Part shown: piece after piece, positions 1,590-30,164 of the stretch
How positions within the stretch are numbered: the stretch's first letter is position 1
Layout of the letters: each line of letters begins with the position of its first letter
Notes under the pieces: model-generated
Seen by the model: only the letters and a program-made list of their open reading frames with translations
What the model was told of the DNA's origin: nothing
Databases searched by the model: none
Source: Pleurotus ostreatus/Saccharomyces cerevisiae fusant
Taxonomy: Eukaryota; Opisthokonta
Direction of reading: 5' to 3'
Assembly: GCA_024196135.1 (NCBI GenBank)
Contig: JAMQCK010000031.1
Span: 62,001 to 126,000, forward strand
DNA: 64,000 nt
Position numbers and translations under genes: made by a program

Positions 1590-2592
1590 CTAATCGTACA
1601 GAACGAGATAGGCGGGGCGTATGGCATCGTTGGAGTATACTACGACCTCGTCATAGTTCAGTTGTGCACCAACCTCCCCCAGGACCTGAGGATGTCAGAG
1701 GCGGATTGGAGGAAAAGAACATTGTACGTACTGAGTCGTAGCCGACGGGCGGTGTCGTTAGGGAGGCGTTGTCGTAGCGCATCTTGTACCCTCTGCCGAT
1801 GACGACCTTCGCCAGAATCATCGCCTTCATAGTTGACCACCTATCTGTACTCAGGGAGTAGTCATCGGACCTAATCTGCGTCAAACAAACTTGTGATGAA
1901 GAGCACGTTATGACTACTAACTTGGAGGACGTCGAGGACGTGTAAATCCCTCTACCAAACCTGCGTACTGGGCCTAAGTTCGGGACTTGTCATCCGAGTA
2001 GGAGGAACTTACCGCCCCCATCCGGTCCTGCCCTTGAAGTGCCGAAGATCGAAAGACTTGCGGATGATGCAACACAAGGAACACGTCGATGAATTGCAAG
2101 GTCTGGTCTGATCTTTCTCGCCGATCCAGCATTCGCGTCTGGTTCCATGCCATCGTCTCTTCTCGTTTCCTGGAGAGCGCCCGACGGCAGTGAAATCTCC
2201 ATAAGCCTCTACAGTTTGCCTGCGCGACCAGGCTTGAATGGACGTCGTCGGAACAATGGCAGGAGTACTACTCACTGGTATGCCTCGTAACGACTGACAA
2301 CATCGAAAGACGATATGATTAGGTAGATGCGCAGCACCGTGGGGCAGCGCTTGTGCGGATGCCTCCAGGATTGCTCAAACTGTTCGGCGACTAAGAGCGA
2401 GGTAAATGCAGATACTACTCCAACCTCAGAGCCTGATCACTTACCACTGGCGAATGCCGCATGATGGCGAGGAATATTGACAATGTTCGGACCGGCGAAG
2501 TAAAGGGAGTCTTCGCACCAACGACTACAGATAGTTGATTGTTTTCCGCTGTGCCTACGCCCGCAGTATATGCAGAAAACACAAGGCCTGAT
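1590..2592 (-). CDS. PARP-like ADP-ribosyltransferase paralogue ART-B (5' end unresolved)
   Basis: Predicted NAD-dependent ADP-ribosyltransferase of the H-Y-E (PARP/tankyrase-like) class. Reading the minus strand through about six introns gives, in order, a Cys-rich knuckle (CIYCGRR then ICSRWC), a linker ending near HHAAFAS, a spacer block (VAEQFEQSWRH), the RRWHGTRREC His motif, an inserted Cys group (C..C..LCCII), the FGRGIYTSSTSSK Tyr motif, the PPVGYDSV loop, and NYDEVVVY with the third catalytic residue. The stop TAG is at 1590-1592. The three more N-terminal zinc modules seen in ART-C and ART-J are not visible upstream of 2592, so this copy is either shorter or its first exons are too diverged to recognise. 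It lies head-to-tail with ART-C. Substrate and partner are unknown. The catalytic half is sure; the start is not. Confidence 0.78.
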
Positions 2593-3582
2593 CTACTGGT
2601 TAGCTCTAGTAGTATAGCGAAGGTACATTTGCTACGCACCCCCCAAGAATCAGTTCGTGCAGAGGCGGCGCCAGACGGTAAAGGTCTTCTTCGTACGACG
2701 AGTTTGAAGGCTGACCGAACAACGCTGATGAACGGGGGACTCAGTCGTGAACGCGCAGTCGAGCTCCGTGAGGTCTTACTTCCAATCTCTACGCCTCGTT
2801 GACCATTCCTATCGGAAGACCGGCTTCCGTGGTAAGCGTTATTATACATTCTGAAATCTGGATACTACGAACATCGAGGAACTTGCGTGAGCGAGGGAAA
2901 GGATACGGTGAACGACGCGAAGACGTACTTGGCAAGATGAAAGAGTTGAGCAAGAGCGTGCATCACACGTGGACTCCGCGTCGAGATCGTCCTCGTGTAG
3001 AGTCAGATCAGAGCTCTGTGCAAGGGGGTGAGCATGGTAGGCTTCTGTATCACAGTCGAAAGCGTACAGACCTCGCTCAGCCAAACAATGATATCGCTGG
3101 GTGTTAGCCAAGACATGGGATTGAAACAGAAATATCATCGAGCGACGGTGCCTCCCAGATGGTGGTTATTGCGAACACAACAGAAATATGCAAGATAAGT
3201 TGCCGGTCTTTTGAGGTAAGCCCGGGTGTTCGTGACAGTCATCACAGCTCCCCTGCACGGTCTCAGTTATACAGCCTCACTTCACGCGTCCGCTTCAGGC
3301 CATAAGCGAGGAGCGGCGACACAAAGTGGGTCTTTGGTTCGTAATATTGAGCGTATGGCGGCCGTTTGACCGCGTTGAACGCGGACGCTGCTCGAGCATG
3401 ACGGTCAGAAGCAAAGACAATGGTCGTGGGAATTCAATATACTGCCTAATAAGGAAGGTCATAACAAATAGACAATACATGTAAACAGTGGACCCATAAG
3501 TCGTGAAGTCGTGAAATCGTACGTAGATAAATACGTATAGTACATGCATAGATACTTCACCATCACTGGCATCGTAAGGTTC
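2593..3582. other. Between ART-B and ART-C, possible lost exons
   Basis: About 1 kb. It should hold the promoter and perhaps diverged 5' exons of ART-B. I looked for the CxxC...YCSxxC pattern on the minus strand and did not find a convincing one. The Cys-rich open frame at 2842-3138 does not match the module spacing. Confidence 0.4.
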
Positions 3583-5152
3583 TCACTTCGAATCATAAAC
3601 AACCAAGTATGCTGGCTTGATCGCCTCGTTGCGGTATACGACGAGCTCGTCGTAGTTCAGGCTTCCGCCGACCTCTGCTAGGACCTGGGAGCAATCGACG
3701 ATAAGTACATCGTCACCAAAGGAGAGAAATTTAACCATACCGAGTCGTGGCCGACCGGCGGCTCTGTCAAATCCGTCTTGTCGTGCAGCATCTTATGTCC
3801 GCGCCCCACAACCACCTTCGTCAAGAGGATGGCTTTGCAGGTGGACGGCGTATCGCCCGCGTTCATCGAGTAGTCATTCGCCTTCGATGACGTCGAGGAC
3901 GTATACAGGCCCTTTCCGAACCTAAACGCAATATTCAGTATGTCTGTCATTCAACGACGACGCGCACTCACCTCCCCCAGCCCGTCCTCCCCTTGAAGAA
4001 GCTCAAATCAAACGACGTGCGAATGATCGAGCAGAGCGAGCAGCTCGGCATATCACACAGGTGATTCTGCCCATCGTCACCGAGGCGGCACTGCCGCTTC
4101 GTCCCGTGCCAGCGCCGGTTCTCGTTGCCCTTCGTCAGGCCCTGCGCGGTGAAGTGACCTCGGGATTCGACTTCTTCTCTAGGGTGGGATTGGGCGTGAG
4201 TTACCGTCGCAAATCCTACTCGGAAGACTAGAGAGACTTACCTATATTGCTTGTACTGATTCACGATCTCGCGAGGCGGCTGGATGAAGTAGATTTGCCG
4301 GACGGCAGGGATTGACGTGCGGTGTCTCCAGGAGTCCTGGAATTGGCGGGCGACTGCGGCCGATGAGCCTCAATGAGCACAGAAATATTTGCGAGAAAGA
4401 CTCACCACTCCGGAAGCGATCGTGGTCGACGGGCACCTTCAGGACGAGGGGACCCTTGTCCAACGCCGTATCTCGGCATGCACGACCACAGTACGCAGAT
4501 ACTCTATCCGTGGGGTTCTTGCGACAAAGAAGGCAAATGTGCTCCGCGAGGCTGGTGGAAAGAGTCAGAGATGGAGCAAAGGGAGTCAAAGGTAGCAATG
4601 CAGACGTACTTCCGGTGCTTCAAAGAGCAGTACTTCGAAAGCGTTCCGTCGTTCTTCCGATAGACAGAGTTACCGCAGTCAACGATCGCGCATGTCGTAG
4701 CTAATGCTGAATATGAGAGACTATCGGGAAAATTGGACTCGAGCTTACCTGACGAGCTCGCCGCCGCTGCCGGCTGTGGCGACGAAGGCGGCTTCACGGT
4801 AGCAGAGATCGCTGCCTTCGCAGCTGCCTCGGCCGCCGCTGAGGCGCAAAGCCTGCCACAGTGTGGAAAGATACGCTTGCCCTCTTTGTACTTCGGACGC
4901 GAATGGCAATACTTCCCAGAGAATTAGCACCTCTTTAGGCAAATCAAATGATGCTACTCACTTCGCATAGCTTCGACGCCGCCGTAGCGCAGCTACGACC
5001 ACAGTACTTGTATCCCGTACTTCCATCCTTGAATCGGGGCCTTGTATGGCAATGCTGCAGGCAATTTAGCGGGCAAGGACGTAAGGTTGACAAGACAGAT
5101 CACTCACGTCGCAAAGGTACGAGGGCTGGTACGTGTCGACGAGCGCAGGCAT
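3583..5152 (-). CDS. PARP-like ADP-ribosyltransferase ART-C, full zinc-module form
   Basis: Predicted ADP-ribosyltransferase with all parts of this local family. The start ATG at 5152 opens a 15-codon exon (MPALVDTYQPSYLCD, 5152-5108). The first zinc knuckle (CDHC) is split by intron 1. Four Cys modules follow: HCHTRPRF..YCGRSC, YCHSRPKY..HCGRLC, CAIVDC..YCSLKH and CLLCRK..YCGRAC. The catalytic part has RRWHGTKRQC, an inserted Cys group (LCDMPSCSLC), FGKGLYTSSTSSK, PPVGHDSV and NYDELVVY, so His, Tyr and Glu are all present. Unlike most copies it lacks the intron after the SSK motif. The stop is at 3583. The 5' end faces NADAR-D across 0.88 kb, so the pair may share control. I infer writer activity; the zinc modules could bind nucleic acid or protein. 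Confidence 0.88.
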
Positions 5153-6034
5153 AGCGTCCAGCGGTATGCAACAAGTGATCCAGCGGAAGCCAGTGAAGGT
5201 TTAGACGAAGAAGGGTATGCTGAAACTTATAGCGGGTCTCCGCGAAGGCCACGCCTCGCGCACAAGGGGGCACCTGGAGACCATGAGGCGCAGACCGTCG
5301 GCGATATGTGGTAAACTTCACCCGAGGGTCCCCTCTTGTGCATGTCGGGCTCATCTTTACTAGGGTGCGGCTCTCTCGAGTGGTGATTAGACAGATATGA
5401 ATATTGGAGATGTATACAAGCTCTCTTCACGTTCGTCTTCGAAGCCGGTTCTCTGCCTGACTGAGCGATTTCTGTTTTTGATGATCGACGCTACAAGTAC
5501 CATGTCGGTCCAGAACATCTGTATACGCTGCCATAGAGCGCCTTCGGCGGCGTGCTGGAGTATTGCAGACTTTTGAAAACAAAATCTATGTGGACGAAGG
5601 CAACGACGGCGAACGGGGCGGACCGTTGATCACCGCGTCTTTCTCACGGTTTGCAAGTTGAACTTCGAGCCCAGGTCGTCTCTGTCCATTGTCCTCACCT
5701 ACGCGAAACTTGTTGCACGCAAGTCCTCACCAGCGCAAATCCATTCGCACCACCCAAAGTAGCGTTCTCTTACTCCCTTTCAATCCAGGGGAGCTTACGC
5801 GGACAAGACACGTGCTGCCCTTATTATACGGAGTCAGCCGGCGCCTCACCTGAACAACGTGGGGGACGGGATGTGCTGAGCGCTGCGACCTGTCTCGCCT
5901 CTGCTATCTCGCGTCACTAGACGCATGGCTCGCTAATTGCAACTTAACTTCCAACCACCACGATCGCGCCACTCATCGGCCGAGCACAAACTCCCTAACA
6001 TTGCTCTCGTTCTCCTTCTATTCTCTCCAGTTAC
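5153..6034. promoter_or_regulatory. Shared divergent upstream region of ART-C and NADAR-D
   Basis: This 882 bp gap separates the start codons of ART-C (minus) and NADAR-D (plus). No coding pattern was seen. A pyrimidine-rich run (6001-6030) lies just before the NADAR-D ATG, as is common in fungal promoters. Shared regulation is an inference from geometry only. Confidence 0.4.
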
Positions 6035-8036
6035 ATGTCCACGCCTGAACCCATTGACATAGCCCCTCTGGCAATCCCTTCCGACACTCTCGTGCACATC
6101 GGCGAAGTCCCTCCAGGGTCCTCTGATAACCCGCGCCAAGCGACGGTTACGACAGGCGAGGACGGGGCTGTCCAAATCTTCCTGCCCCACGGCTGCCAGA
6201 TCACGTTCACGCCGCGCGACTCGGGCGCCGTACGCACGCTGGCGCCTTCTACGCCAACGACTCCATCTAAGTCTGGCTTCGACAGCGTTCTCGGACCGAC
6301 TGCTTCGACTTCTTCCCTCTCTTCTCATCTGGGCTCATCACCCCATCGACAACCGGGTGAGAGCGGCGAGCAAGACTCGCTTGTGACTTCCACCTCCGTA
6401 GCGGAGGCCGACATAGAGGAGATCGAGGCGTCTTCTGACTTTACATCGTCCATGCCTACGGCGCACACAGGCGTCGCATCGCCGCCGTATATGACACGGC
6501 GGGTACCGGCGGATGAAGACTACTACCATCGTCACGCGGGAGGCCGGCATCGAAAAAATGCAGGATTAGGCTTTCAGGACAGCCAAATGCATGCGAGGAG
6601 AGGCTCGGACGACATGTCTACGGATGACATGCAGCCGCATAGCTGCCCTCCCCCGAGCAAGCGCAACTTCGCGCCGACTACACCTTTGCATGGGAACTAC
6701 AAGGATCACCGCAGTAGGCCTGTGTCCGCGACGCTGCCCCTGCAGTCGACCAACCGCGAGAATGTGTACGCCAGCGCCAGCGCTAGCCCCAACGCGCACT
6801 CAGGTAGCGCGGGCGGCAAGCGACCGTATACTCGACCAGCGAGCCTCGCTACAGTCCGCTACTCAAGCGCGGAGTCGGTCGCGCGCTCGCAGCTCGGCTC
6901 TCCATACATCCAAATTACCCCTCCCGCCGATCGCAGCAGCCAATTCTCGGTCGCATCATCCTCACCCAAAGTCATCCTGTTCTACCACAAGCACGATCCG
7001 TACTACGGCTTCACGAACTTCTCCGATCACCCGGTGATCTTCGAAGGCAAGACCTACCCGACGAGCGAGCACCTCTTCCAGGCCTCGAAGGTCGTATACT
7101 GTACCCAATCGATAAGCGCGAACTGACCTTCTTGCATGCAGTTCCTCGGATACAGGCCGCTGCTTGCGGAGCACATACGCAAGGTGTCGCGCAGGCCCGC
7201 TGTCGCGTTCTCGGAGGCGCGTCGCTTTCAGCCTGAAGTCCGGCCAGATTGGCTGCAGGTCAACATACAAATGGTGAGTGGGCCCAGTCTCAGGCATGAT
7301 CAACAACTCACCGCTCACGCAGATGGACCGAGCGATCTACCACAAGTTCAAGCAGCACCGCGACCTTCGTGAAGAGCTCTTATCAACCGGCGACGCCGAG
7401 CTCATCGAGGTGCGTCTTCCACCCTACACCTGAGTCACGATACTCACTTCCACCCAGGACTCTGACAAAGACGCCTTCTGGGGCGTCGGCGCGGACCGCA
7501 AGGGCCGCAACGAGCTCGGGAAGGCCCTCATGCGCCTCCGCGACAGGCTTCGGAGGGAGCAAGAGGAGGAAGAGGAAGCCCGGGCAATCGCTGAGGCCGC
7601 CAAGGCAAGTCCTCCGCCCTCTCCCAGAACGGGCGGTTTGAACAACTTATAGGTCGCAAGGTCCGCCGACGCAACATCCCTCGGATATAATTCACCCATG
7701 ACATATAACGCTCCCCTCGCCTATAACGAACCCGTCGCGCGCCGCACGTCGCAGGGGAGCGACAGCGTCCGATCGTCGCATCGGTCGGGGAAGGCGGGGC
7801 GGCAAGTGCCCGTGCGGTTCTCGTCGGGCTCTGGGGGAAGTGGAGGATACAGTACATGGGAGCGCTCGTCGGAGGTAGAACAAGAGGGAGCGAGGCGGAG
7901 TAGTCGGCGCGCTAGCGGTGGCGGTGGCGGCGGCGGGCGCGCGCCTGCGCCGGCGTCTGGACCTGTCGAGTGGGTGATGTACGCTTTCGTCGCTATTGCG
8001 GCCCTCGCTATTGGGGTAAATATGTTTGTAACTTAA
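6035..8036 (+). CDS. NADAR-D: NADAR (DUF1768/YbiA-like) protein with optional tail anchor
   Basis: NADAR domains bind ADP-ribose-like ligands. Characterised members remove ADP-ribose from guanine, or cleave riboflavin-pathway intermediates. Exons are 6035-7090, 7142-7273, 7323-7409, 7458-7604 and 7653-8036 (601 aa). Residues 1 to about 310 are Ser/Pro/Thr-rich and look disordered. The domain starts at VILFYHKHDPYYGFTNFS, has YPTSEHLFQASK with the conserved Glu, continues through RPDWLQVN and ends with DAFWGVGADRKGRNELGK. The last intron (7605-7652) is GC-AG with the donor AAG|GCAAGT. It is 48 nt long and in frame, and if it is retained the protein stops at TAG 7650-7652. If it is spliced the protein gains a Gly-rich linker and a hydrophobic C-terminal segment (VMYAFVAIAALAIGVNMF), which is a likely tail anchor. 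It is flanked by ART-C and ART-E. Confidence 0.9.
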
Positions 8037-8181: not shown

Positions 8182-9662
8182 CTACGTGAAGGGTTCGTAA
8201 ATAACGAGATACGCGGGCTTGATGGCCTCGTTCCGATACACGACGAGCTCGTCGTCTTCCACGGAACCGTCCGGCTCGGCAAGGATCTGAATGGACGTTA
8301 GACCCCGGGCTGAAGAAGCAGTCCAGCTCATCCCTGCTCACCGAGTCAAAGCCAGGCGGGGAACGAGTGAGCGTGGGTGCCTCCGTGACGCATTTGGCCA
8401 TGTTACCGGCCGCGACTTTGCACAGAATAAGCGCTTTGAAGCGGGATGCGCACGCGTTGCTCGAGTATTGATCAGCCCTAGCAGAACAAAAAACTTGAGC
8501 TCTTCATCAGGCAGACGTTAGACTAGATGAATACTTCGAAGAAGTGGCGGTCGAGTAGATACCGCGACCGAACCTGTGAAGGGCGAGAGATATCACTGTG
8601 GCCCAACCCAGCATGGATGAAGAATTGTGTACACACCTTCCCCAGCCATTCTTCGAATTGGCGAACCCCAGGTCGAAGGAATTGCGTATAATGTTACACA
8701 GGGAGCATGTAGGCTGAGCGCACAAGTTCTCGTGATTGTAACTGTCACCGAGATTGCACGCACGCCTGGTTCCATGCCATCGGTACACCTCATTTCCCAT
8801 GGCCATGCCCCCGTACTGAAACTCGCTGCGCAACTCCAGATAATCACTGGAGCGTTGTTCAATGACCGTAAGAGAACATGACTGCAAGGGCTTACCGATA
8901 CGCCCAGTAAGACTTGTCGGCGTTCACAGACGTGGCCAGCATGTACACTTTCCGCACTGTCGGGCGGTCTGAGGGCATGGAGCGTTCCCATGTCTCGTCG
9001 AAGTATCCTAAGACTGACTATCTGTCAGAAACATCGATGCGAAAGATCGCAAGAGACTTACTGCTTAATAATCGCACAGCATGAACGTCGCAATCCATAT
9101 CCCACAGACGAGGCACTTGGGCGAACTGGAGCCAGCACGATTGCGAACAGAACTCACTGGGCTCGTTCTGCATGTTCACCTTGCAGAACGCGCATATGTG
9201 GCCGTAGTACCTGTGTGATCAGTATAATCTACGGGTATAACCACAAACAAGAAGCGTACATGTGTTCGAGATCGCAACAGGTCAGAGCAGGAGCATTGAT
9301 GGACAGTATTTTGGCCGTTTGCTGACACGTTGGCACCGAGCATTTGGGAGCAACTGTGAAAAGTAAGTGTAAAGCAGAAGTTGCACGATGTCACGGAGAG
9401 ATCGCGTACGATCGTGACGAAACGGAAAATGCTGGCCCTTGCTTTGAGCCAATGGAAAGGGGTATTGTCGCGCTTTCGCTTCGCAGTGATCGCAAAGTTC
9501 GCACAAGCCAGCACCCCAGCGACTGCACATCTGTATATCTGCATCAATAAGAGGACATCTGATCTGAAGCATAAGAAAGCGCACAGAGCATGATTCTGAC
9601 AAGCTGACCGGGACGGTGAAGCATCGTGAGCAGTAGAAACCTGGCGGGGCGCCCATCGGCAT
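8182..9662 (-). CDS. PARP-like ADP-ribosyltransferase ART-E
   Basis: Predicted ADP-ribosyltransferase paralogue whose 3' end lies 145 bp from the end of NADAR-D (convergent). The catalytic part contains YRWHGTRRAC, an inserted Cys group (LCAQPTCSLCNII), FGRGIYSTATSSK, PPGFDSV and EDDELVVY, so the H-Y-E residues remain. N-terminal modules are more diverged than in ART-C: CSRC..MCSRW, CELCDHC, KCSVPTC..CCDLEH and CAFCKV..FCSQSC. The preferred start is the ATG at 9660-9662 (MPMGAPPGFYC), which puts the first CxxC near residue 11; a second ATG lies two codons later. The stop TAG is at 8182-8184. Exon borders in the N-terminal half are approximate. Function beyond ADP-ribosylation chemistry is not known. 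Confidence 0.78.
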
Positions 9663-10502
9663 TCTGTAAACACCTGGACGAGCATAGCAACGCTGTCAAA
9701 GATCTCAGTATACTGAGTCGCCATAAGCTGCTGTCGCGCGTACCCCACAAAGTGGTGCACGTTCGGGCACTGCTAAAGCCATTCTGCGGAGGAGACGGGG
9801 CGAGCGAAGGAAACGACCGCGATGCGGACGCTATAAGGAGATTGGAGAACGCGTCAAGACCAGAAGGACCTTGCGTACACCGTATGGCATCTCGTGTACG
9901 CGGGTTTCGTTCAAACTAGGCTGGAAACAAGCAAGAAGGCAGGTCGGGGTGCGATGAAAAAGATGGACCCCATAGATCACGCTCGATTAATTTGAGCGTA
10001 TTGGACAGTTTAGAGATGGCGAGTATCAGTTGTGCAGCGCTGCTATATCTCCTCCCTGAGTGCCTCGATGGACCTCGCAGAGCCAACGTCCGTAGAACAT
10101 GTCTTTGTTGACGGTTCGGGAAGAAAGACTTGAACGTGACAGCTGTACACCGTGACGTTACTCTCCTCTGGTAGTGCCACGTGGCTTATGCGCGTTCCCC
10201 AGTAAGCGGTGCGAAGGAGTTCTTTGCAACGTTACCCTCGTACTCAAACCTATGATGTTTGGGCGAGGTGGTTCGCTAAGTCTTTCGAAAAATTTGCAAC
10301 TCATCGCGATCTACTTCACCTCAGAGACGAGGCCTTCCTAATCCGGAACAAAGACTACATCCCCGACTGTCATAATGTCAATCCAGGTTGGACTGGATCC
10401 GCAAGAAATACTGTTGAATATACTGTACATCTAAGATAGATAAGCACGTCAAGAGCTGTAACTACTTCCCTCATATCCACCAAGTTATAGAGGCGCACAC
10501 GT
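9663..10502. other. Intergenic, nothing recognised
   Basis: About 0.84 kb between the start of ART-E and the stop of the cystathionine beta-lyase/mevalonate kinase gene. An open frame at 10209-10439 on the plus strand has no recognisable pattern. Confidence 0.5.
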
Positions 10503-15283: not shown

Positions 15284-15366
15284 AACCCGAGACGGGATTC
15301 GAACCCGCAACCTCTGCCTGATTCCGCAACCGGAAAGCAACGTCATAACCATTAGACAACTCGGGC
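15284..15366 (-). tRNA. tRNA-Arg(CCG) with 10-nt intron
   Basis: On the minus strand the acceptor stem is GCCCGAG with CTCGGGT (one G-T pair). The D arm is GTC..GAC, and the anticodon stem is TTGCT with GGCAG. The loop TTCCGG places CCG at 34-36. A 10-nt intron, TTGCGGAATC, follows position 37, the canonical place. The T arm is GCGGG TTCGAAT CCCGT. It reads the Arg codon CGG. It sits inside the ART/NADAR cluster, between VPS71 and NADAR-H. Confidence 0.9.
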
Positions 15367-16565: not shown

Positions 16566-17294
16566 AGCTTACAGTGATAATTAGTGCGTCCGCCCGTTGC
16601 TGAATGATATCCGGGTTTTGTCGAGAGAGCGGAAGGGCGTCGGAGGAAGAAGAGAGGCGACCTTTATGAGTGGAGTGATCCGTGCCAATGACCTAGCCTC
16701 GTGTAAGTCGCGCTTGCGAAGCCGTCTATGAGGCGTTTGCTCCGAAAGAGGGGTGAGATGAAGGGGCATGACTGGGCGTTTGTACACGAGGCAGCATAAT
16801 AGCCGCGCCGAATGAGCGCTTCCGGCCTTCGTCGACGCGCTTTGCGTCCTCGCAATGCTGCCATATCGTATATTTCATGCAGAATGCTCGAACGAACCTA
16901 CAAAACAGAATGTTCAAAGTTGGGACGAGACAAGGAGCAGATCGACAAAATCCGAGAGCCCTTCGTGCGCAACACGTGTGACATTGATGCCGCCGTTTGT
17001 TAGCAGACGCCACCATGCTGAACGTTGTCAACGCGGACGCCGCTGGCCTGATGCAAACAGCGGGCCTTCCAAGAATTACCGCTTCTCAATTCTTCCACTG
17101 CTCGACTGCGTGATGCCTGGTAGCAAACACGAGGCGACCGTCTTACCGAAACGGGGTCCTTGGCCACGCGAAAAACGTACTTGTCTTCCTGACCGACGCG
17201 CGGTGATAGACCCTTTCGAGCCGCCACATGAACGACCGCGAGCCATATATGATATCCAGCTGAAAGCGCTTGCTCCACATCTCCAACTCCCGCC
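16566..17294. promoter_or_regulatory. Divergent upstream region of NADAR-H and ART-I
   Basis: This 729 bp gap lies between two divergent start codons. No zinc-module exon of the ART type is visible on the plus strand here, which supports ART-I starting at 17295. Shared control is inferred from geometry only. Confidence 0.4.
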
Positions 17295-18862
17295 ATGGCG
17301 AAGACGCATCAGTACAAGGATTATCCCTTCGCTCACTGCGCAGACCTGCGGCGCCCCAACCTGGGTCGCCTGAAGGGCCTTGCGCGACAGGATCCGGAAT
17401 ACGAACAAGGTTGGCGGGAGTTGTCTGTGCTGGGTCGTGTACTGACGCGCTCGCAGTCTTGCGATTTTTCATGACCGGGTGGCTTCACCCTCACAAACCC
17501 ATCCCGGACGTTCTGGATATTTACAAACTGCCGCAGCCGTCCAGAAGCGTTGCTGCGTACGAGAGATATAGGTAAGGCTTCTTGCAGTGAGCATCGTTTC
17601 CCACACTGACCTTGGACCTAGGGATCGAGTGGCGTCTGAGCTCCGAAATCCGCGCGATCCTTCGTTCGCCAATGAGACGCTCTTATTCCATGGCACTCGC
17701 CATACGTGCTTGGGTGACCCCAGTATGTCTGGTACCTCGCTGTGCGACCGCTTCAGTTGCTACTCGTGCGGCGTCGTACGTGCATCGTTCAAGAGGGATA
17801 GATGCGGTATGTTAATCTCCTTACTGTATTTCTTTCCATTGCTTACCTGCGATACAGGACAGCGGCACTCCTTCAAGAGGTGATTATGACCTTATATCTT
17901 CTCTGTGGTTTCTCTGACCCTCCTTAGGTTCGGGACCGGTATCTACGTGAGCTCGTGCTCTTCCAGTATGTCGCAGAATTCACTGCTGAACGGAGAGGCC
18001 TCTGATCATTCCGTGCAGAGGCAGACGATTATTTCGACGATGGAGGAAGTGACCCTGGCGTCCGAACGCTGCTGGTCAGCAAGGTCGTCATGGGTAGACC
18101 GCTTGAGCTACGCTACAGCGATCCCAGCATCTCCGAGCCTCCGCCAGGTCATCACTCTGTAAGTTGATGTGACTTGTTCGTGACGCCGTATTCTAAATCA
18201 CGTAGGTCATCGGCCTTCCTGGTGGCAACCTCAACTATCCCGAAACCGTCGTGTATCACGAAGACGCTATCCGGCCGGCATACATCATCAAGTACCGTTA
18301 CGACACCGCGGCTGCAAACGCGCAGGCGGTACCGCCAGATACGTGCGCCTGCGCCGCGGAGGTCCCATGGGAGAAGCAAGTGGATTCGTCAGTCGCGTCA
18401 CGATCTCGCACGACACCCTCCTCACCTCCTAGGCAGGCTGGACATGTTGAAGAGCTTCATCCGTGGCGTGGACGACGTCCTCCGCAGCGCTCCTATCCCC
18501 GTGCAGCTGCGCCTGTCGCCCCAAGAGGAGTTGGCCCCGGAGCGCATCGCTCGGACGCTAATAGAGGAGAACCAGCCAGTCCACCGCCGTGCGAGCGCTT
18601 CGCGCAGCACCACGGTCGTCCGCGACACCCCGGCGGCAAAGTCTACGAGCGGCAAAGAGTACGTTTTCTCCCAAGCCAGCAGTCCCATACCCTGACCCAA
18701 TATAGGTCTAGCTTGTTGTCGTTGATCTTCGGCCCTTGGCAGCGCGTACAGCCTGAAGAGATTTCGACTGCTGAAGCACGAACTACTGGCTCGGATTCGG
18801 ACTCCGACGATGATGAGGAGGACATGTCTGCCTTGATTTCTCAATTTGCATTCCTGTCGTAG
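17295..18862 (+). CDS. PARP-like ADP-ribosyltransferase ART-I, zinc-less N-terminus and acidic C-terminal extension
   Basis: Divergent member of the local ART family. The ATG at 17295 has a strong context (CCGCCATGG). Exon 1 (17295-17409) encodes a short new N-terminus (HQYKDYPFAHC) in place of the zinc modules. Exon 2 (17457-17571) gives the spacer block (FFMTGWLHPHK..YERYR). Catalytic motifs are LLFHGTRHTC, a Cys group (FSCYSCGVV), FGTGIYVSSCSSK, PPPGHHSVIG and NYPETVVYHEDAIRP, so H, Y and E are kept. The loop PPGHHSVIG is the closest in this cluster to the tankyrase version. About 120 residues follow after further introns: a basic/Ser segment (HRRASASRSTT) and an acidic tail (SDSDSDDDEEDM), ending at 18862. 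The splice before FIRGVDDVL has two possible donors, so that junction is tentative. It is divergent from NADAR-H and tandem with ART-J. Confidence 0.82.
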
Positions 18863-19299: not shown

Positions 19300-20870
19300 A
19301 TGGCTGCACCTCCTCCCTGCGAAGTGCGCTCCGTCTCTTACACACGCGCCATGACTCACCTTGTGCTCGCGTCCAGACCTGCTTCGTTCAGCCCGCCATC
19401 CCCGGCTCCGCGTACTGCGGGAAGACGTGCGAGGACAAGGATAAGTGCGAGGTATGCGTGTTCGACGGGTTTCCAATGGGTTGATCGCTCATACGACGTT
19501 CATCAGCTCTGCCATAAGCGCCCGAAATACAAGGGCGGGAAGCAGCCGTCGGCGTACTGCAGCAAGACCTGCGCCGACACTGCGAAGGCCTTGAGGTCGC
19601 CCACACCAGCGAAATCGCCTTCACTGAAATCAAATCAGACCTCAAAGTCGAATGGTCCAGGTAGATGAAGTATATTTCTGCTGCGATGATCCCACTTACC
19701 CTGGCCGCCCAGCCTGTGCCATCGTCACTTGCAAGCGCACCGCGCACGAGAACGCTGATGGCACCTACGGGCGCTACTGCTCGGTTAGCCACAAGAAGTG
19801 CGTCAAGCGCTCGTTGGACCCTCTTCTGTCTCTGATCCTGCCCATAGGCTAGGAGAGGCGATATGCCTCTACTGTCGCAAGGGCGAGAAGAGGGCCAACT
19901 CCGCCTTCTGCAGCCGCACATGTCGAGACGAGGCGGCCAACAAGGGCCCTATCCTTATGGAGATCCCCTCCGACCATGCCATCTTCGCAAGCGGTGCGGT
20001 CTTCTCGCTCATTTGTTTGCGGCGCATGCTCTGACTGTACTTCGCCAGTTGCCGACCAGTTCACTGGTTCGTGGAGGCATCCGACGAAGTGTCCTGGCGT
20101 GAAGCGCATATACAAGATCATGCCGGATCAGGCAACGTGCGCGCAGTACAACAAATATCGGTGAGTGTTCGGTAGATTCTAGCGCAAGGGAAAATAGTAC
20201 TCAATTCATCATTCATCAGCGCGGACGTAGAAGCACGCGGCAACTTCGCGGCGCGGGGCATGACTGCGGGGAATGAGCAGCGCCGCTGGCATGGCACGAA
20301 GCGCAAGTGCACGCTGGGCGACATGGAGCAGGCGAAGCTTTGCGGTGACACGACCTGCTGCCTCTGCAATATTATCAAGACGTCTTTCGACTTGACGGCC
20401 TTCGGGAAGAACACGGGCTGGGGCAGGTGGGTTCATTGATTCATATCGCGACCTGTTAATCGACGCGGTGCTCAGATTCGGAAGAGGCATCTACACGTCG
20501 TCGACGTCGTCAAAGTAAGTGGTCGAGCGCTTTACGTGGGCCAAGTAGCTGACTGGGCTCAGGTCGAACGACTATTCCAAGAACATTGACGCCAGCGCCT
20601 TGTCGCCTCTCAAGGCCGTTCTCCTCAACCGCGTCGTCGTAGGCAGGGGGGACAAGACCTACTTCAATCACTCGACATGGACCAGCGCTCCGCCAGGCTT
20701 CGACTCTGTGAGTCTTGCAACCTCTTTGTGTTGTCTAAGTCGCTGACAGCGTCTAGGTACTGGCGGAACCTTTCACCATCCCTCTTGCGGGGGCTCTCAA
20801 CTACGACGAGGTTGTCGTATACCGCAACGAAGCCATACGCCCGGCGTATCTGGTCCTGTACAAGGCCTGA
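19300..20870 (+). CDS. PARP-like ADP-ribosyltransferase ART-J, full zinc-module form
   Basis: Complete ART paralogue of about 370 aa in ten exons. Exon 1 is only eight codons (MAAPPPCE, 19300-19323). The first CxxC (CETC) is split by intron 1. Modules in order are CETC..YCGKTC, CELC..YCSKTC, CAIVTC..YCSVSH and CLYCRK..FCSRTC. A Ser/Lys/Pro linker separates modules two and three. The spacer VADQFTGSWRH is followed by RRWHGTKRKC, the Cys insert (LCGDTTCCLC), FGRGIYTSSTSSK, APPGFDSV and NYDEVVVYRNEAIRP, giving an intact H-Y-E triad. The stop TGA is at 20868-20870. It is convergent with NADAR-K, 464 bp apart. I infer NAD-dependent transferase activity. The zinc modules resemble FCS/MYND-like knuckles but match none that I can name. 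Confidence 0.9.
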
Positions 20871-21334: not shown

Positions 21335-22244
21335 TCAAAACCTCTGCTGGCGCAACTTCGTCCTCAGCCTCATGAGGGCTTTCCCGAGCTCGTTGCGACC
21401 CTTCCCGTTGGGCCCAACGCCCCAAAAGGCGTCCTGGGCAGAGTCCTGTACCCTGAATCAGCACACGCACGATCATCTGTTTCGCACGGCGTACCTCGAC
21501 AAGCTCCGCGTCTCCCGTAGCGAGCAGCTCCTCGCGCAGAGCCGGATGCTGCGTAAACTTGTGCTCCAGCGCAATCTCCATCTGCACCCGAGGTTAGCTA
21601 CGCGACTTCATAACCGCAGACAAAAACGTACCATCTGTACGTTGACCTTGGACCAGTCCTTACGGACCTCCTTCTGGAAGCGATGCGCTTCCGTAAACGC
21701 AGCGCGCGGGCTTGGCGAGCTCGTCCGGATGTGCTCGGCTACCTGCGACTTGTGAGGCAGAAACTGCGCGTAATCGAGTGAGCCTACGGCGCTGCTCGAC
21801 TGCCGTTCTAGAGCGTACCTTCAACGCCTGGAATAGGTGCTCGCTCGTGGGGTACACCTTGCCTTGATACGTGACGGGGTGGTCGGAGAAATTGGTGAAG
21901 CCGTAGTGCGGGTCATGCTTGTGGTAGAAGAGTATACGCTGCGGCTGAGCGAGGTAGACGCCCTTGACATTGCGCGGAGCGTCTCGGCGAGGTTTGGGAG
22001 AAGGCTGTCCGCGAGTGGGTGTCGTCGGCGTCTGGTTTTGAGAGCGGGGTGGTTTATTCGATCTTGGGCAGCACCAGTATGCCGGATTTAGAGCACGGAA
22101 TGGGGAGGGTCGTGCTGTCTTGCTCGACGCCGCTGCTGCACGACCTCCGTACTGAGGATTCTGGACGAAGGCGGTTGTACGACCAGCGGCGGGCGCCCCG
22201 CGCCCCGCTTGGGAGGCCTTCCCAGTTTGCTGACGCCTGGGCAT
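21335..22244 (-). CDS. NADAR-K: soluble NADAR-domain protein
   Basis: Third NADAR paralogue. Exons 22244-21819, 21763-21632, 21581-21495 and 21445-21335 give 251 aa. Residues 1-95 are basic, Pro/Gln/Ser-rich and look disordered. The domain has ILFYHKHDPHYGFTNFSDHP, almost the same as NADAR-D, then YPTSEHLFQALK with the conserved Glu, VRKDWSKVN, MEIALEHKF and DAFWGVGPNGKGRNELGK. It ends at LRQQRF, so it has no tail anchor. The 132-nt and 87-nt internal exons equal those of NADAR-D. It is convergent with ART-J and in tandem with ART-L. Likely an ADP-ribosyl glycohydrolase; a riboflavin-pathway N-glycosidase role as in plant and bacterial YbiA relatives cannot be excluded. Confidence 0.9.
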
Positions 22245-23177: not shown

Positions 23178-24354
23178 TCATTTTGAATACATGATAACGT
23201 ACGCGGGAACGATAGCCTCAGGATGAGGGAAATGAATAGCGTCAACTGACCCCTAGCGAACAATAAGCTGGGCTCGCACTCCGTTATTACTGCGCTCACC
23301 TTCTTCAAAGCCAAATCCGCGACCGCATCGCAGGCGATCATCACGCGATAAGGCGAGGTCGTACAGGACGTCGCGTCCTTGTCAGCCATAGCGGGATTTC
23401 CATAGGTATATACTCCCCTCTCCGGCCTGGGGGACAGGTAAGTAGCGCGCTCGACATGCGAAAGTAAATTTCTCACATTCCCTCTATTTGTTTGCTCCCA
23501 AAAGCAAACGACCTGAATGACGACTTGATGGACATGCAGATTCCGCAGGACTTGAAGTCGCACAAGACTGGAAACTTAGTTCCTAGGTCGCAGATGCACT
23601 GCTGACTGAAGAAGGTGCGTATGCGCGTCTCGTTGGGGCGGCTTGACCTAATCTCCGTCAGCGACATGAACTACCACCGAAAAAAATCCCTCACTGATAG
23701 TCATGATAGCCCCGCATCGTATCTGCGGGAAGGACGACGCGGTAGACCTTCTCCACAGACGGCACTATTCCAGGCCCGCTCCATTCGCTGACGAAGTGCG
23801 CCTCGACTGGATACCGACGCGATTAGACGTTCATGTCTCTTCCATATCTGACCCATCTACTCACGATTCGAGAACTCCGTGCTACCAGCGTCGACTTCCA
23901 TGAGCCGCGCTGTGCCAGGGTCCTGCGACCTATTGCATCCCGTGCACAAGTCGCCGACGGCACGCGGGAGCCTCAAACACGTCGTGCATGCAAGGGCCTC
24001 TCGGCTTTGTACCGCGTCGCTACGTGAACGGAGGCTTCATCAGCCGACTTGAAGCAGGGCGGACAAACATGCTCACATAGCGTGTTGTTCGCAGCAATAT
24101 CCGCCAAAGGCAGTTCGCCCCGTCGCCTCGCACGTGCTGAGCGCGCACGGCGACGGGTTCAAGCCCTGTTTGCTCGCGCATGTCCGACTGCAGTATGGAT
24201 ACCGCGTTCCGTTCTCCATGAACTTGGGGCGTTTGCCACAGACCTAGAACGCGCGCCGATGAGCATCGATGACAGGATAAACGGACGCTGGACGCGCCTC
24301 GCAGAGGTGTGTGGTGGGCATTCCGCTGTGCCGCTGGTTGCGCGAAGTGGCCAT
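23178..24354 (-). CDS. ART-L: degenerate PARP-like paralogue, probable pseudoenzyme
   Basis: Same exon plan as the active ARTs, but the catalytic residues are gone. The ATG at 24354 opens MATSRNQRHSGMPTTHLCE. The first CxxC is again split by an intron, here apparently GC-AG (GAG|GCGCGT to TTCTAG). Modules are CEVC..YCSRTC, CALSTC..YCCEQH and CTTC..LCTGC. The spacer block is HFVSEWSGPG..YHDYQ. At the His motif the frame reads RIRTFFSQQC instead of RRWHGT. The Cys insert remains (LCDFKSCGIC). The Tyr motif is ERGVYTYGN, and the Glu region has become HFPHPEAIVPAYVIMY with no DE pair. Splice sites and frame are kept over the whole gene, which argues for a maintained non-catalytic protein rather than a dead gene. 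It is divergent from ART-M, 243 bp between starts. Confidence 0.75.
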
Positions 24355-24597: not shown

Positions 24598-26177
24598 ATG
24601 GCCGCCTCCGCTGTCGCAACAGGTTTGCCGATAGCGATTTCCGTTTTACAGGCCGCCACGGCAGCTCTCCAGAAACCTTCAAATTCTCGCTCTTCCCTCG
24701 ACCCCTCAGCACCACCACCTCCTGCGCCGAGCGCCGTTCCAACCTTATCTTCTGCATCTACATCGCACATGCCTCCTGCCCCACCTCCACCGCCACCTCA
24801 GCCACCCATGCGCCAGTCATCCGCCTTGAAGCCCAGCAAGAAGGTCAACGGTTCGAATAACCAGATGCTCTGCGAGGTACGCTATACTTGATTCCCCTAC
24901 CCGCGAAGGGAAGGACTTAACGAGCTTCAGTACTGTCACGCGAACCCACGTTTCTTCGACGGTGGCAAGCGGCATCCCTACTGCAGCAAGAAGTGCGCAG
25001 GCGAAGCCAAGAAGAATAACTGCGAGGTGCGCGGTGGCAACTCTACTGACTTACATGACACGTTAAACTGACGAATTTGGCTCAGTTCTGCCACCAGCGC
25101 GCCAAGTTCCACGATGGCAAGAAGTCCTATCGGTATTGTGGCAAGATCTGCGCCGCCGCTGCCGCCGTCCAGGCTGGCGCGCCGAACGAGGACAAGATCT
25201 GTTTGATGTGCCGCAAGGCGGAGAAGCAGCCGCGTTCGCACTTCTGTAGCAAGACTTGCGTGGAGGAAGCCGAGAAGAAGGGCCCAGCCATTCTAGAGGT
25301 CCCTGCAGGACATGTTACCTTCCTTAGTGGTGAGCTTTCCGCAGGCGTGGCTAAGGACGCGACACTCACCTTACGCAGTCGCCGACCAGTTCAAGCAGTC
25401 GTGGAGACACGCGAAGCCATGTCCGCCAGTACGGAGGGTCTACAAGATCCTCGCGCCGCACGCGTCATTAGGGAGCTATAACGCGTACAAGTGAGTAATC
25501 TCCTCTTCTCCACGCAATCCCATCCGACAATGTGTGCAGAGCCGCCGTCGAATCCCGAGGCAACTTCAAGCAGCAAGGCATGGCCGAGGGCAACGAGTGC
25601 CGACGATGGCACGGCACGACGCGCGAGTGCTTGCTCGGCGACAAGGGCCACACGCAGTTCTGCGGCTCGCCGAACTGCCCGCTGTGCAACATCATCAAGA
25701 CCTCGTTCGCGCTGAGCCACTTTGGGAACAAGACCGGTTGGGGACGGTGAGCACGGACGCGTTTTGCGACATTGACTCAGCTGACGCGTGAACTAGATTT
25801 GGCAAGGGCATCTACACGTCGTCGACGTCGTCCAAGTGAGTACTTGTATTCTCCTTTGGCGGGAGGACAGGCTGACGTACCGCGTTCCAGGTCGAACGAT
25901 TACTCGTCCAACAAGACCCGGTCCCCGCTGAAGTCCATCTTGTTGAACAAGGTCATCGTCGGCAAGGGCTTCAAGATGCTGCACGACGAGCCGACTCTGA
26001 CGTCCCCGCCGGCGGGGTGCGATTCGGTGCGTACTCGTCCCCAACACATTTGAGCGCTGGCTAAATATTTCGTTCCAGGTTCTCGCGGAGAAGGGCATGG
26101 CCTTGAACTACGACGAGCTCGTCGTCTACCGCGAGGATGCCATCCGCCCTTCGTACCTCGTTATGTACGAGGGCTAG
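24598..26177 (+). CDS. PARP-like ADP-ribosyltransferase ART-M, reference copy
   Basis: The best-resolved ART: exons 24598-24876, 24931-25026, 25086-25329, 25379-25490, 25540-25746, 25797-25835, 25891-26026 and 26079-26177 total 1212 nt (403 aa). Residues 1-90 are Pro/Ser/Ala-rich. Zinc modules follow: CEYC..YCSKKC, CEFC..YCGKIC and CLMCRK..FCSKTC; the CAIVxC module of ART-C and ART-J is absent. The catalytic part contains His268 (RRWHGTTREC), inserted Cys 274/285/290/293, Tyr319 (FGKGIYTSSTSSK), the PPAGCDSV loop and Glu384 (NYDELVVY). The spacing and the G-x-G-I-Y...SKS signature match PARP-type transferases. The stop is at 26175-26177. It is convergent with eIF3e. Activity and target are inferred from family only. 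Confidence 0.92.
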
Positions 26178-26558
26178 GCCGACATCCAATGCGCATTGTA
26201 CATTAGTAGGGACGGCGGGTGGTCGTCCTGGTCAAGTTGAAGCAGTCATTTCGCTATCTTAATTTAAGTAACGCATTTTTACTATTTAATCATTTTGTAA
26301 CCTCCTACCCACGTGATGGTCACTGTTGAAGTTCGCGGGATGTGACCCACGATTCTATGCGCTAGACAGAAGAGAGGGGGCTACAGGCATCCTCGGCAAT
26401 ACACCAAACCATTGACGGAGGTCGATCTTCACGTGACCGAGGACGTTCAGAATAAATGAATACAGGGAGGCCTTTGCACGTCCATGCCCTCAGATGATCT
26501 ACAAGCAAGTATACAGAGATCGTACAGGGGTAAGTAGTACAAGCATTGCGCCCAGCGC
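26178..26558. other. Convergent 3' region between ART-M and eIF3e
   Basis: 381 bp, AT-rich around 26260-26300, probably 3' UTRs. Nothing else was seen. Confidence 0.5.
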
Positions 26559-28168: not shown

Positions 28169-28616
28169 TTTGTGCTCGACGTCGCCGACGATGTGTAGAA
28201 GATGGGGACGGCGGGGGAGCGAAGACGATGAAAATTAGCACAGCCACTCTGATGATTGAGTCGCGGGAAAGAACTGCCAAATTGGTTACTTCAACCGTGA
28301 CGACGTGACGTTACGGCCTGCAGCATCTTTCCCAATAATTTAGAGGCGACGTACACAGCAGGCTGTAGGTTCCTGCTGCTCACAAACTAATATGATTCCG
28401 ACGTAGTTATTCCAAGATTTGCTTTAGAGTTGCCCTCATCTGTGCATCGCAAAGATTCGGAGGAAAAGATGATCAATTAGGACATGGAATAGAACGGTAG
28501 TAGTGAGCAGCAGAACGTAGCGTACAGGTATCTTAAGCTTCTAAGTACAGCAGCAAGCAAAGTAAGCATAAGTCATGGAATAGGTGAGATTTTTAGAGGG
28601 AGTCGCGACTCGCGAT
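28169..28616. other. eIF3e promoter region and ART-O 3' flank
   Basis: 448 bp upstream of the eIF3e ATG. No specific element was recognised. Confidence 0.45.
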
Positions 28617-30164
28617 CTAGAGGTCATACATGACCAGGTAGGCTGGGCGCACAGCGTCGTTGGTGTAGACCATGATGTCGTCGTGGGCAAGGAAGAAGCT
28701 CTTCTTGGCCATGACCTAGGTGGTTGAGTTGTCAGATCATCAGATTGCGCTGGAACTCCGAGACGCTCACAGAGTCGTAGCCCTGAGGCGCGGTCTTCTT
28801 GAAAGGCCTGTCGACGTGCACGATCTTGGGCTTGCCGACGATCACGTCGGCCAGGATCATGGCCTTCGCCGTCGAATTATGCACGCGGTTGCTCGAAAAC
28901 TCGTCCGCGCTGCACTTGCGGTTAGTCGCATGTAACCGAACAATGATTATCGCAACTCACGTATAGGTGGAAGACGACGTGTAGATCGCGCGACCGAACG
29001 CACCGATAGGCAGCTTCTTGCCGTGCGCCTTCAGGTCGAAGTCGGTGCGGATGATGCTGCAGAGGCGGCAGGTCAACGAGGCGCAGGGGTACGACTGCTC
29101 GCTCTCGCCGATGAGGCACTCGCGGTACGTGCCGTACCAACGGCGTGTCTCGTTCCCGGCGGGCAGGTTCTGCGCTTCGAAGTGGTTGCGACTCTCGACG
29201 AGGGTGCTGTGGAAGTTTATGAGCTAGAGATTATAAGTGAAGCAGATATAGACTGACCGGTAGGCATTGTACCTCTCTCGGGCAGCCTTAAACGGAACAA
29301 TGGCGTAGATAGCCTTGATCGCCGGAGGGGTACCACTCTCGTCATCCCACGAAGCGTCAAAGTCCAGCTTGACTATAGCTCTCGTTAGCAGATAACTCGC
29401 TGATTTCATGGAGATCCCATACCGTCATGGAAGGCAACATGGTCCTTCGGGACATCAGCGAGCACCATGCCTCGCTCACCGGCTTTCTGCTCGCAGCGAG
29501 TGCTGCAAAAGACGGTGCCTGGGGACGCGGTACCGTACTGGCAGGTCAGGCAAGAGTTCGAACCATGCCTATGCAGCGGCGGCATTGCGAAGGGAGTGCC
29601 GTCGGCTTGCGAGCTCGCGCCGTTGGGCGGCGCTGCCTGACTCATTCTGCGAGGCGATGATTAGACACTCGACGTCCCTAGACGGCAGAGTCATGCTCAC
29701 TTCATGTGCGCGCGACTGCAGAACGTTCCCTCTGTGCCGTCGGGGGCAACATACACGGCGCGGTCGCATCCGCTCAGCTCGCAGAGAGCTGCGAAGTCAA
29801 GCGTCAGACGCGGCTCGGGATGAAAGAATATCCAGACCACGCACTATTCTGCGGCTGCGCAATGACCAAGGGCAGAGGCTGCGGCTGTGGAGAAGCGACA
29901 ATCGAGGCCGGATGTCCGCTTGCCATCCGCGCCTGAATGGCGCAGTGCTTGCCGCAAAAGAGGTGCCTCTCGACGCCATCATTGAACTGAGGGCGCTCGT
30001 GGCATTGCTGTGGGTCACGACGTCAGCGCAAGAAGCCGACACTGAGGATGGTCCACTAACGACGCAGAGGACCTGATGAGGGTCCTGAGAAGAGAAGTGT
30101 GAGTCCTGACGAAGACCTGGCAATGCAAAGAAAGACATACGCGCGGGTTGTACAGGGCCTGCAT
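28617..30164 (-). CDS. ART-O: PARP-like paralogue with altered triad
   Basis: Eighth family member, separated from the rest by eIF3e. It has the spacer block (FDASWDDESGT..YNAYR) and the ART domain, but the His motif reads RRWYGTYREC (His to Tyr) and the third motif reads HDDIMVYTNDAVRP (Glu to Asp). The Tyr motif FGRAIYTSSST keeps Tyr but loses the second Gly. The Cys insert is present (PCASLTCRLC). N-terminal modules are QCHERPQF..FCGKHC, CELSGC..FCSRAH and CLTCQY..FCSTRC. The stop TAG is at 28617. There is no intron between the Cys insert and the Tyr motif, unlike the other copies. The start near 30164 (MQALYNPR) is tentative; an ATG at 30370 would also be in reach through a different first exon. 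It is probably catalytically weak or inactive. Confidence 0.75.

What the first reader, a model, noticed from the sequence alone, without database searches (positions are those of the whole stretch)
1590..30164. Interleaved array of eight PARP-like ADP-ribosyltransferases and three NADAR proteins
Seen: eight paralogues with RRWHGT / FGxGIYTSSxSSK / NYDExVVY-type motifs lie in 28.6 kb together with three genes that carry the NADAR signature (YHKHDPHYGFTNFS, YPTSEHLFQA). Known: PARP-type enzymes attach ADP-ribose from NAD; NADAR proteins bind ADP-ribose-like ligands, and bacterial members reverse guanine ADP-ribosylation made by DarT. Inferred: the locus encodes matched writers and erasers, perhaps acting on nucleic acids or small molecules in stress, self-recognition or defence. 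I know of no described fungal locus with this layout.
Basis: partly seen in the sequence, partly recalled or inferred. Interest (0 to 1): 0.93.

Follow-up and report, generated by a model that had tools for sequence, protein, structure and literature searches.

The report
Fungal PARP and NADAR gene array
A chromosome segment, apparently fungal, carries eight related genes for PARP-like enzymes, which attach ADP-ribose, mixed in with genes of a family that can remove ADP-ribose; if the two kinds work together, fungi would have an unrecognised reversible ADP-ribosylation system.

Summary
Window 1590-30164 encodes eight PARP-type ADP-ribosyltransferase (ART) paralogues (A-H) and three NADAR genes (N1-N3). 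Two more NADARs (N0, N4) lie on the same contig outside the window. A spliced scan of C514:22-156 kb found these eight ARTs and five NADARs and no more. Whole-genome searches with ART-F, -B and -D found ART-domain matches only inside this 28 kb.

Six of eight ARTs keep the H-Y-E triad. H (Y-Y-D) and G (no H, no E) do not, yet their frames are open. The ARTs have FCS-like Cys modules (not in D), match PARP4/tankyrase catalytic domains best, and differ from the genome's other PARPs. The NADARs are YbiA-type with active-site residues largely kept.

A functional writer-eraser link is inferred from position only. Tested NADARs erase guanine-linked ADP-ribose, so a matched pair would need guanine-modifying PARPs, which I do not know to exist. 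Housekeeping genes interrupt the array, no shared promoter word exceeded chance, and synteny in other fungi could not be tested. I rate it a new variant of a known kind.

The parts
1590..2574 (-). ART-A: PARP-type catalytic domain (RRWHGT / GRGIYTSSTSSKSDDY / NYDEVVVY, H-Y-E) with one clear FCS-like Cys module; N-terminal exons unresolved
3583..5152 (-). ART-B: model of 377 aa in 9 exons: four Cys modules plus PARP catalytic domain, H-Y-E
5153..6034 (.). 882-bp head-to-head intergenic region between ART-B and NADAR N1
6035..8035 (+). N1: NADAR protein of 601 aa (last intron GC-AG, set by hand): long low-complexity N-terminus, NADAR domain (within 6974-7580), Ser/Gly-rich linker, C-terminal hydrophobic segment (tail-anchor-like)
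8182..9760 (-). ART-C: PARP catalytic domain with variant motifs (YRWHGT / GRGIYSTATSSK / EDDELVVY, H-Y-E kept); Cys modules upstream seen in the frames, exact exons and upper end unresolved
15650..16565 (-). N2: NADAR protein (YbiA-type active site)
16566..17294 (.). 729-bp head-to-head intergenic region between N2 and ART-D
17295..18862 (+). ART-D: divergent PARP domain (LLFHGT / GTGIYVSSCSSK / NYPETVVY, H-Y-E), short N-terminus without the Cys modules; C-terminal extension with unresolved splicing
19300..20870 (+). ART-E: Cys modules plus PARP domain, H-Y-E; first splice not verified
21335..22244 (-). N3: NADAR protein (YbiA-type active site)
23178..24243 (-). ART-G: degenerate ART. WHGT and the catalytic Glu are lost and the Zn-like Cys cluster is kept. 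Six exons joined by GT-AG introns without a stop in frame (the first intron uncertain); 5' end unresolved
24598..26177 (+). ART-F: model of 403 aa in 8 exons: three Cys modules plus PARP domain, H-Y-E
28620..30162 (-). ART-H: PARP-like domain with His to Tyr (RRWYGT) and Glu to Asp (HDDIMVY); Cys modules kept; 5' end approximate

Best explanation
An old, locally expanded family of PARP-type ADP-ribosyltransferases, most with zinc-module-like Cys arrays, has grown and been kept in the same chromosome segment as an expanded set of YbiA-type NADAR hydrolases. The proposed mechanism, in steps: (1) The N-terminal FCS-like Cys modules and the Cys cluster inside the catalytic domain fold the enzyme and dock it on a target, plausibly nucleic acid or a ribonucleoprotein (inferred). 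(2) The six H-Y-E members bind NAD+ and transfer ADP-ribose (inferred from residues). (3) G and H act as non-catalytic partners or regulators (inferred from open frames with lost catalytic residues). (4) The cluster NADARs hydrolyse guanine-type N-glycosidic ADP-ribose adducts made by the family, or their side products, limiting self-damage (inferred from position and from the tested activity of other NADARs). The likely setting is stress or intracellular defence, because expanded, partly decayed ART sets elsewhere serve conflict (analogy, recalled). Shown here: the genes, their domains, residues, layout and conservation. Not shown: any activity, the shared substrate, co-expression.
For: Eight ARTs and five NADARs on one contig segment and no further copies there. 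Queries ART-F (27 matches), ART-B (33 of 35 matches; the other two are Cys modules on C1223) and ART-D (20 matches) hit ART domains only within C514:63.6-92.0 kb. 5 of 7 NADAR loci of the genome lie on C514. H-Y-E in 6 of 8 ARTs; four invariant Cys in all 7 aligned domains (G left out of the alignment). NADAR residues equivalent to P. nicotianae E43, K50, E125 and W133 in 5 of 5 C514 NADARs and D130 in 4 of 5, whereas both dispersed NADARs have lost E125. Purifying selection: omega 0.11-0.14 for the 3 pairs among N1-N3 (N0 and N4 not included); 0.17-0.65 for the 18 of 21 ART pairs with computable dS (G not included). Two of three window NADARs are head-to-head with an ART. A NADAR of the same YbiA type (P. 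nicotianae) removes guanine-ADP-ribose.
Against: The pairing rests on one genome. No shared 8-mer in eight upstream regions exceeds resampled sequence (several start sites are estimates, N0 and N4 left out). Housekeeping genes (a GHMP kinase, a Cys/Met-metabolism PLP enzyme, an eIF3e-type gene, a tRNA-Arg) sit inside the array, and N4 lies 38 kb from the nearest ART. N3 is not head-to-head with an ART. E. coli YbiA hydrolyses guanosine-ADPr in vitro but did not protect cells from DarT1. Bacterial NADARs had no or negligible activity on U-ADPr made by a PARP, human PARP10. An H-Y-E triad is typical of protein-modifying PARPs (recalled), and NADARs are not known to me to act on protein ADP-ribose. 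The genome has macrodomain genes elsewhere that could be the real erasers.
Confidence: 0.4

Rival explanations
1. Two unrelated tandem expansions share a chromosome segment by chance. The ARTs modify proteins and the NADARs are metabolic N-glycosidases that destroy reactive riboflavin-pathway intermediates, as described for bacterial and plant members.
For: N1 matches YbiA with 115 bits, and the Mol Cell paper relates motility-linked YbiA-like members to flavin-biosynthetic NADARs of plants and fungi (PMC11543638). Unrelated genes interrupt the array. No shared promoter word. N4 is far from the ARTs.
Against: P of about 0.0025 for two such arrays overlapping at random (uncorrected for choice of families). 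Five retained copies with largely intact active sites are odd for a housekeeping role. The two NADARs outside C514 have lost the catalytic Glu, though this also means that a metabolic NADAR, if needed, would have to be one of the five.
Confidence: 0.33
2. The ARTs and NADARs act in one pathway through soluble products: the ARTs (or NAD breakdown in stress) yield ADP-ribose derivatives and the NADARs process these small molecules rather than a macromolecular mark.
For: A 2022 survey proposes soluble ADP-ribose derivatives as targets of phage NADARs (PMC9503650, passages; for eukaryotic RNA viruses the same paper favours macromolecular targets). NADAR members are N-glycosidases. Interleaving as above.
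Against: Biochemically tested NADARs act on guanine-ADP-ribose in DNA and RNA. H-Y-E PARPs are transferases rather than NADases as a rule (recalled).
Confidence: 0.15
3. The array is a birth-and-death nursery of conflict genes: ARTs are intracellular effectors against viruses or foreign nuclei, and NADARs independently detoxify ADP-ribosylation made by enemies (bacterial or viral ARTs). They share a neighbourhood because it is tolerant of expansion, not because they share a substrate.
For: Locally expanded ARTs with two catalytically decayed members; five NADARs; a published proposal that NADARs may protect bacteria and eukaryotes against toxic ADP-ribosylation (PMC11833690, passages).
Against: Duplicates are old (dS above 1 or saturated in all pairs but one) and under purifying selection. 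No recent segmental copies: repeats found are coding homology only.
Confidence: 0.12

Closest known systems
PARP/ARTD family, Clade 4/5-like catalytic domains (tankyrase, PARP4)
   Same: H-Y-E triad in six members; GxGIY...SSKS/A..Y and PP.G..SV......E.V.Y motifs. Best PDB matches of the profile of seven domains are PARP4 (58 bits) and tankyrase-1 (55 bits).
   Different: Four-Cys insertion between the HGT and GIY motifs; FCS-like Cys modules (not in D). No ankyrin/SAM or BRCT/VIT/vWA domain was found in full-length B and F. The host looks fungal, and published surveys give fungi only Clade 1 and 6 PARPs and find no PARP4 or tankyrase there.
NADAR family (PF08719), YbiA subfamily; P. nicotianae NADAR, E. 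coli YbiA
   Same: Pfam NADAR 138-139 bits for N1-N3; E43, K50, E125 and W133 equivalents kept in five of five C514 copies, D130 in four of five.
   Different: Expanded to five copies around ARTs; N-terminal extensions in N1-N3; one copy with a hydrophobic C-terminal tail.
DarT1-NADAR (DarTG1) toxin-antitoxin system
   Same: An ADP-ribosyltransferase gene next to a NADAR gene.
   Different: Here the ARTs are PARP-type with an H-Y-E triad, the NADARs carry the YbiA Glu rather than the BC4488-type Asp, there are many paralogues of each, genes are spliced and on both strands, and nothing shows toxicity or rescue.
Expanded PARP sets in animal antiviral immunity (PARP10/12/13/14 group; recalled, with general statements seen in PMC9503650)
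   Same: Expanded PARPs with zinc modules and some members without catalytic residues.
   Different: Those belong to Clade 3 with WWE, macro or CCCH domains (recalled), none of which Pfam found in full-length B and F; no infection or expression data here.

Membership tests
PARP/ARTD catalytic family (PF00644) | Pfam PARP domain above the curated cut-off | tested here: met
   Met in 6 of 8 (A-F, 38-53 bits, cut-off 26.7); H 26.0 bits, just under; G no match (F full length, the others as domain models)
PARP/ARTD catalytic family (PF00644) | H-Y-E catalytic triad | tested here: met
   6 of 8 (A-F); H has Y-Y-D; G lacks H and E
PARP/ARTD catalytic family (PF00644) | NAD-dependent ADP-ribose transfer | not testable with these tools
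   Needs purified protein
Fungal Clade 1 (PARP1-like, WGR/PRD/BRCT) or Clade 6 (PARP6/8-like, UBCc) PARPs | WGR, PRD, BRCT or UBCc domain beside the PARP domain, and the clade's HGS-type motif | tested here: not met
   No such domain in full-length B and F or in the domain models of the others (unresolved N-termini not covered). The genome's other PARP loci read [26 protein letters not shown] and FHGSSIRNWHSIL; their clade assignment by motif is recalled
Tankyrase / PARP4 | Ankyrin+SAM (tankyrase) or BRCT/VIT/vWA (PARP4) | tested here: not met
   Only the PARP domain reached a cut-off in full-length B and F; the resemblance is in the catalytic C-terminal half only
NADAR (PF08719), YbiA subfamily | NADAR domain and the subfamily glutamate (E125 in P. 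nicotianae) | tested here: met
   N1-N3 138-139 bits. Glu kept in 5 of 5 C514 copies, lost in both dispersed copies, read by spacing against the residues named
NADAR (PF08719), YbiA subfamily | Hydrolysis of guanine-linked ADP-ribose or of riboflavin intermediates | not testable with these tools
   Needs enzyme assay
DarT1-NADAR toxin-antitoxin system | DarT1-type ART with a BC4488-type NADAR (Asp in place of the YbiA Glu) | tested here: not met
   ARTs match PARP and NADARs carry Glu, the YbiA state. No DarT profile was searched in its own right
DarT1-NADAR toxin-antitoxin system | ART toxic alone, rescued by the NADAR | not tested
   Bench work
Dedicated fungal gene cluster | Contiguous, co-regulated genes without unrelated genes | tested here: not met
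   GHMP kinase, Cys/Met PLP enzyme, eIF3e-type gene and a tRNA lie inside. No shared upstream 8-mer beyond chance; co-regulation itself was not testable
Conserved ART-NADAR synteny in fungi | Proximity kept across related species | not testable with these tools

The most novel reading that the evidence does not exclude
The array encodes a eukaryotic, reversible base-ADP-ribosylation system: H-Y-E PARPs that use zinc modules to reach DNA or RNA and modify guanine, with dedicated NADAR erasers from the same locus and catalytically dead ART partners, a fungal counterpart in logic to DarT1-NADAR but built from unrelated parts.
Probability: 0.15. Interest if true: 0.92.

Novelty: new variant of a known kind. 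Interest (0 to 1): 0.62.

Why it matters
The natural writer matched to eukaryotic NADARs is an open question: a 2024 paper says that the roles of NADARs in eukaryotes, and of bacterial ones outside DarT operons, remain unclear (PMC11125620, passage). This locus names concrete candidates, each ART within about 7 kb of a NADAR gene. It also shows a PARP family, in a genome that looks fungal, that does not fit the published statement that fungi have only Clade 1 and Clade 6 PARPs (PMC2964712, passage). Both points can be tested with a few recombinant proteins and with comparative genomics of mushroom-forming fungi.

Tried and rejected
Tried without result. Shared promoter element: the best 8-mers are in 4 of 8 upstream regions, and first-order resampled sequences reach 4 in 30 of 60 and 5 in 1 of 60; the shared word AACGCGGACG, seen by eye, is in 2 of 8 regions. 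Recent segmental duplication: all repeats found (24 bases or more) are coding homology. Prokaryotic or viral relatives of the ART: 29 and 64 pattern matches, none confirmed, and no phage match. WHGT DNA pattern over the genome: 120 matches against 122 for its reversed control, uninformative. Papers: no fungal ART-NADAR locus in the titles and abstract beginnings listed (25 of 104 shown; 2; 20 of 70; 0; 3; 3, to 2016; 13; 1). One search is uninformative: of 1,749 papers 10 were shown, none holding 'nadar'. The library holds only open-licence papers.

Considered and rejected. 'Eight active writers' (G and H decayed). 'A DarTG1 homologue' (components of another type). 'Exactly three erasers' (five on the contig). 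'Recent expansion' (dS high). 'Window-edge or assembly artefact': the NADARs continue beyond the window on the same 157-kb contig, and GC is ordinary.

Results against my reading: the promoter test, interrupting housekeeping genes, distant N4, no or negligible activity of NADARs on PARP10-made U-ADPr, the weak ART-G signal (78 against a null maximum of 57), and PF00644 picking up only one exon of the array genome-wide.
Full report
What is there. The window is bases 62001-126000 of contig C514 (157 kb) of a 40.05-Mb genome in 1277 contigs. Most modelled introns are GT-AG and about 45-65 bases long, some longer, as in basidiomycetes (the taxon is inferred, no name is given). Motif search and a small spliced protein-to-DNA aligner that I wrote gave eight ART genes and three NADAR genes inside 1590-30164. 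A scan of C514:22001-156000 on both strands found the same eight ARTs (nine hits, E in two pieces) and five NADARs, and nothing else above the maximum of one shuffled query. The order is N0, A, B, N1, C, N2, D, E, N3, G, F, H, N4; N0 and N4 lie outside the window.

Are the families confined to this place? ART-F as query gave 27 matches in the whole genome, all at C514:63593-92016 (that query was a draft with one misread residue). ART-D gave 20 matches, all in the same stretch. ART-B gave 35 matches, 33 of them there and two on C1223, both in the N-terminal Cys modules. At C1223 the four Cys modules occur in the same order (aligner score 218 against a background maximum of 129, n=36), and no ART domain follows in the part read. 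So the Cys-module array also exists without the ART. NADAR (PF08719) lies at five places on C514 and at one place each on C847 and C1112. These searches read exon by exon and are lower bounds. ART-F did not find the genome's other PARPs, and the PARP profile PF00644 found those four loci but only one exon of this array, so distant relatives can be missed.

What the ARTs are. On spliced models Pfam PARP matches six of eight above its cut-off; H is just under and G has none. The alignment of seven catalytic domains (A-F and H) shows four invariant Cys after the HGT motif (C-x10-C-x4-C-x2-C in ART-F), which read as a metal site inside the catalytic domain (metal binding is inferred). G, not in that alignment, keeps a like Cys cluster although it has lost the HGT and Glu motifs. 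Six members keep H, Y and E. H has Tyr for His and Asp for Glu. The profile of the seven domains matches PARP4 best in the PDB (58 bits), then tankyrase-1 (55), PARP3 (49), PARP2 (33), ZAP (28) and PARP1 (27) (best 60 of 74 shown). Outside the PARP domain Pfam has nothing above a cut-off in full-length B and F. The Cys modules give a sub-threshold zf-FCS match in one of four arrays (15.3 bits against 22.4), so 'FCS-like' is a resemblance, not membership. ART-D has no such modules in its model.

Not the known fungal PARPs. The genome has other PARPs at C816, C265, C480 and C1167. C816 and C265 read [24 protein letters not shown], C480 reads [24 protein letters not shown], and C1167 reads FHGSSIRNWHSILRHGL. 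From memory these are Clade 1 and Clade 6 types. A 2010 survey states that fungi have only Clades 1 and 6 (PMC2964712, passages). A 2014 survey reports no PARP4 in fungi (PMC4245714, passages), and a tankyrase survey found none in the fungi it sampled (PMC9688111, passages). A family whose catalytic half looks most like PARP4/tankyrase is therefore outside that published picture. I did not build a PARP tree, as no reference sequences could be fetched.

What the NADARs are. N1-N3 score 138-139 bits to PF08719. N1 matches E. coli YbiA with 115 bits, and the NADAR entry 8bau with 33 (only N1 was compared). Read by spacing against the residues named for P. nicotianae NADAR (PMC11543638, section 12 read), E43, K50, E125 and W133 are present in 5 of 5 C514 copies and D130 in 4 of 5 (Asn in N4). 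The C1112 copy has Phe for E125. The C847 copy has His for E43, Arg for K50 and Tyr for E125. Glu at E125 is the YbiA-subfamily state; the BC4488 subfamily with the DarT1-linked NADARs has Asp. N1 ends in a hydrophobic 19-residue stretch (mean hydropathy 2.25) one residue from the stop, after a Ser/Gly-rich linker; this looks like a tail anchor.

Selection and age. Synonymous divergence is high or saturated, so the duplicates are old. Omega is 0.11-0.14 in the three N1-N3 pairs. In 18 of 21 ART pairs with computable dS it is 0.17-0.65, and 3 pairs are saturated (G, N0 and N4 not included). Omega at such dS is rough. ART-G runs through six exons with GT-AG introns and no stop in frame, the first intron being uncertain, and the H domain likewise runs through its exons, so both look like maintained genes without catalysis. 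This is inferred from open frames alone.

Layout. B and N1 are head-to-head with 882 bases between start codons, and N2 and D with 729. N3 is not head-to-head with an ART. A GHMP kinase (a mevalonate kinase by my reading), a Cys/Met-metabolism PLP enzyme, a tRNA-Arg and an eIF3e-type gene interrupt the array, so it is not a closed gene cluster. No upstream 8-mer is shared beyond chance in eight regions. Random placement of arrays of this size would overlap with P of about 0.0025. With the freedom to pick families afterwards, this is moderate evidence only.

Do the ARTs and NADARs share a substrate? Published NADARs, including one YbiA-type eukaryotic member, remove ADP-ribose from guanine in DNA (PMC11543638, passages and section 12), and bacterial and phage members do so in RNA (PMC11833690, passages). 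Those tested for it fail on thymidine (PMC11125620, section 5 read) and on phosphate ends, and have no or negligible activity on uracil modified by PARP10 (PMC13036486, passages). If these NADARs behave alike, a matched pair requires guanine-modifying PARPs, which I do not know to exist. The pairing is therefore my best single explanation at 0.4, with chance neighbourhood plus metabolic NADARs next at 0.33.

Novelty. Eight informative searches of the open-licence paper library listed no fungal ART-NADAR locus (capped listings, titles and abstract beginnings only, apart from the papers named). An earlier NADAR survey that I recalled could not be read. ART next to NADAR is a known idea in bacteria and phages, so I call this a new variant of a known kind rather than categorically new.

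Noticed in passing
L052 (C1223:14500-24499), about 4140-4990: A protein with the same four Cys modules as the ARTs but no ART domain in the part read; suggests the Cys-module array is a separate unit that was fused to the ART.
   Followed up: partly
window 7605-8035: NADAR N1 has, in my model, a GC-AG intron and ends in a tail-anchor-like hydrophobic segment, so one NADAR may sit on a membrane.
   Followed up: partly
G000:C816:2710-2958 and G000:C265:31575-31829: Two Clade 1-type PARP loci with nearly the same protein sequence over the stretch read, possibly a recent duplicate or two haplotypes.
   Followed up: no
G000:C847:47883-48359 and C1112:4681-5262: The two NADARs outside C514 lack the YbiA catalytic glutamate (Tyr and Phe there).
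   Followed up: partly
window 15284-15366, 49563-49649, 52626-52728: Three tRNA genes by Rfam, the first between ART-C and N2; ARAGORN with the bacterial code missed the third.
   Followed up: no
window 345-755 (-): Membrane-protein-like open frame just left of the array (by eye), no Pfam match at E 0.01.
   Followed up: no
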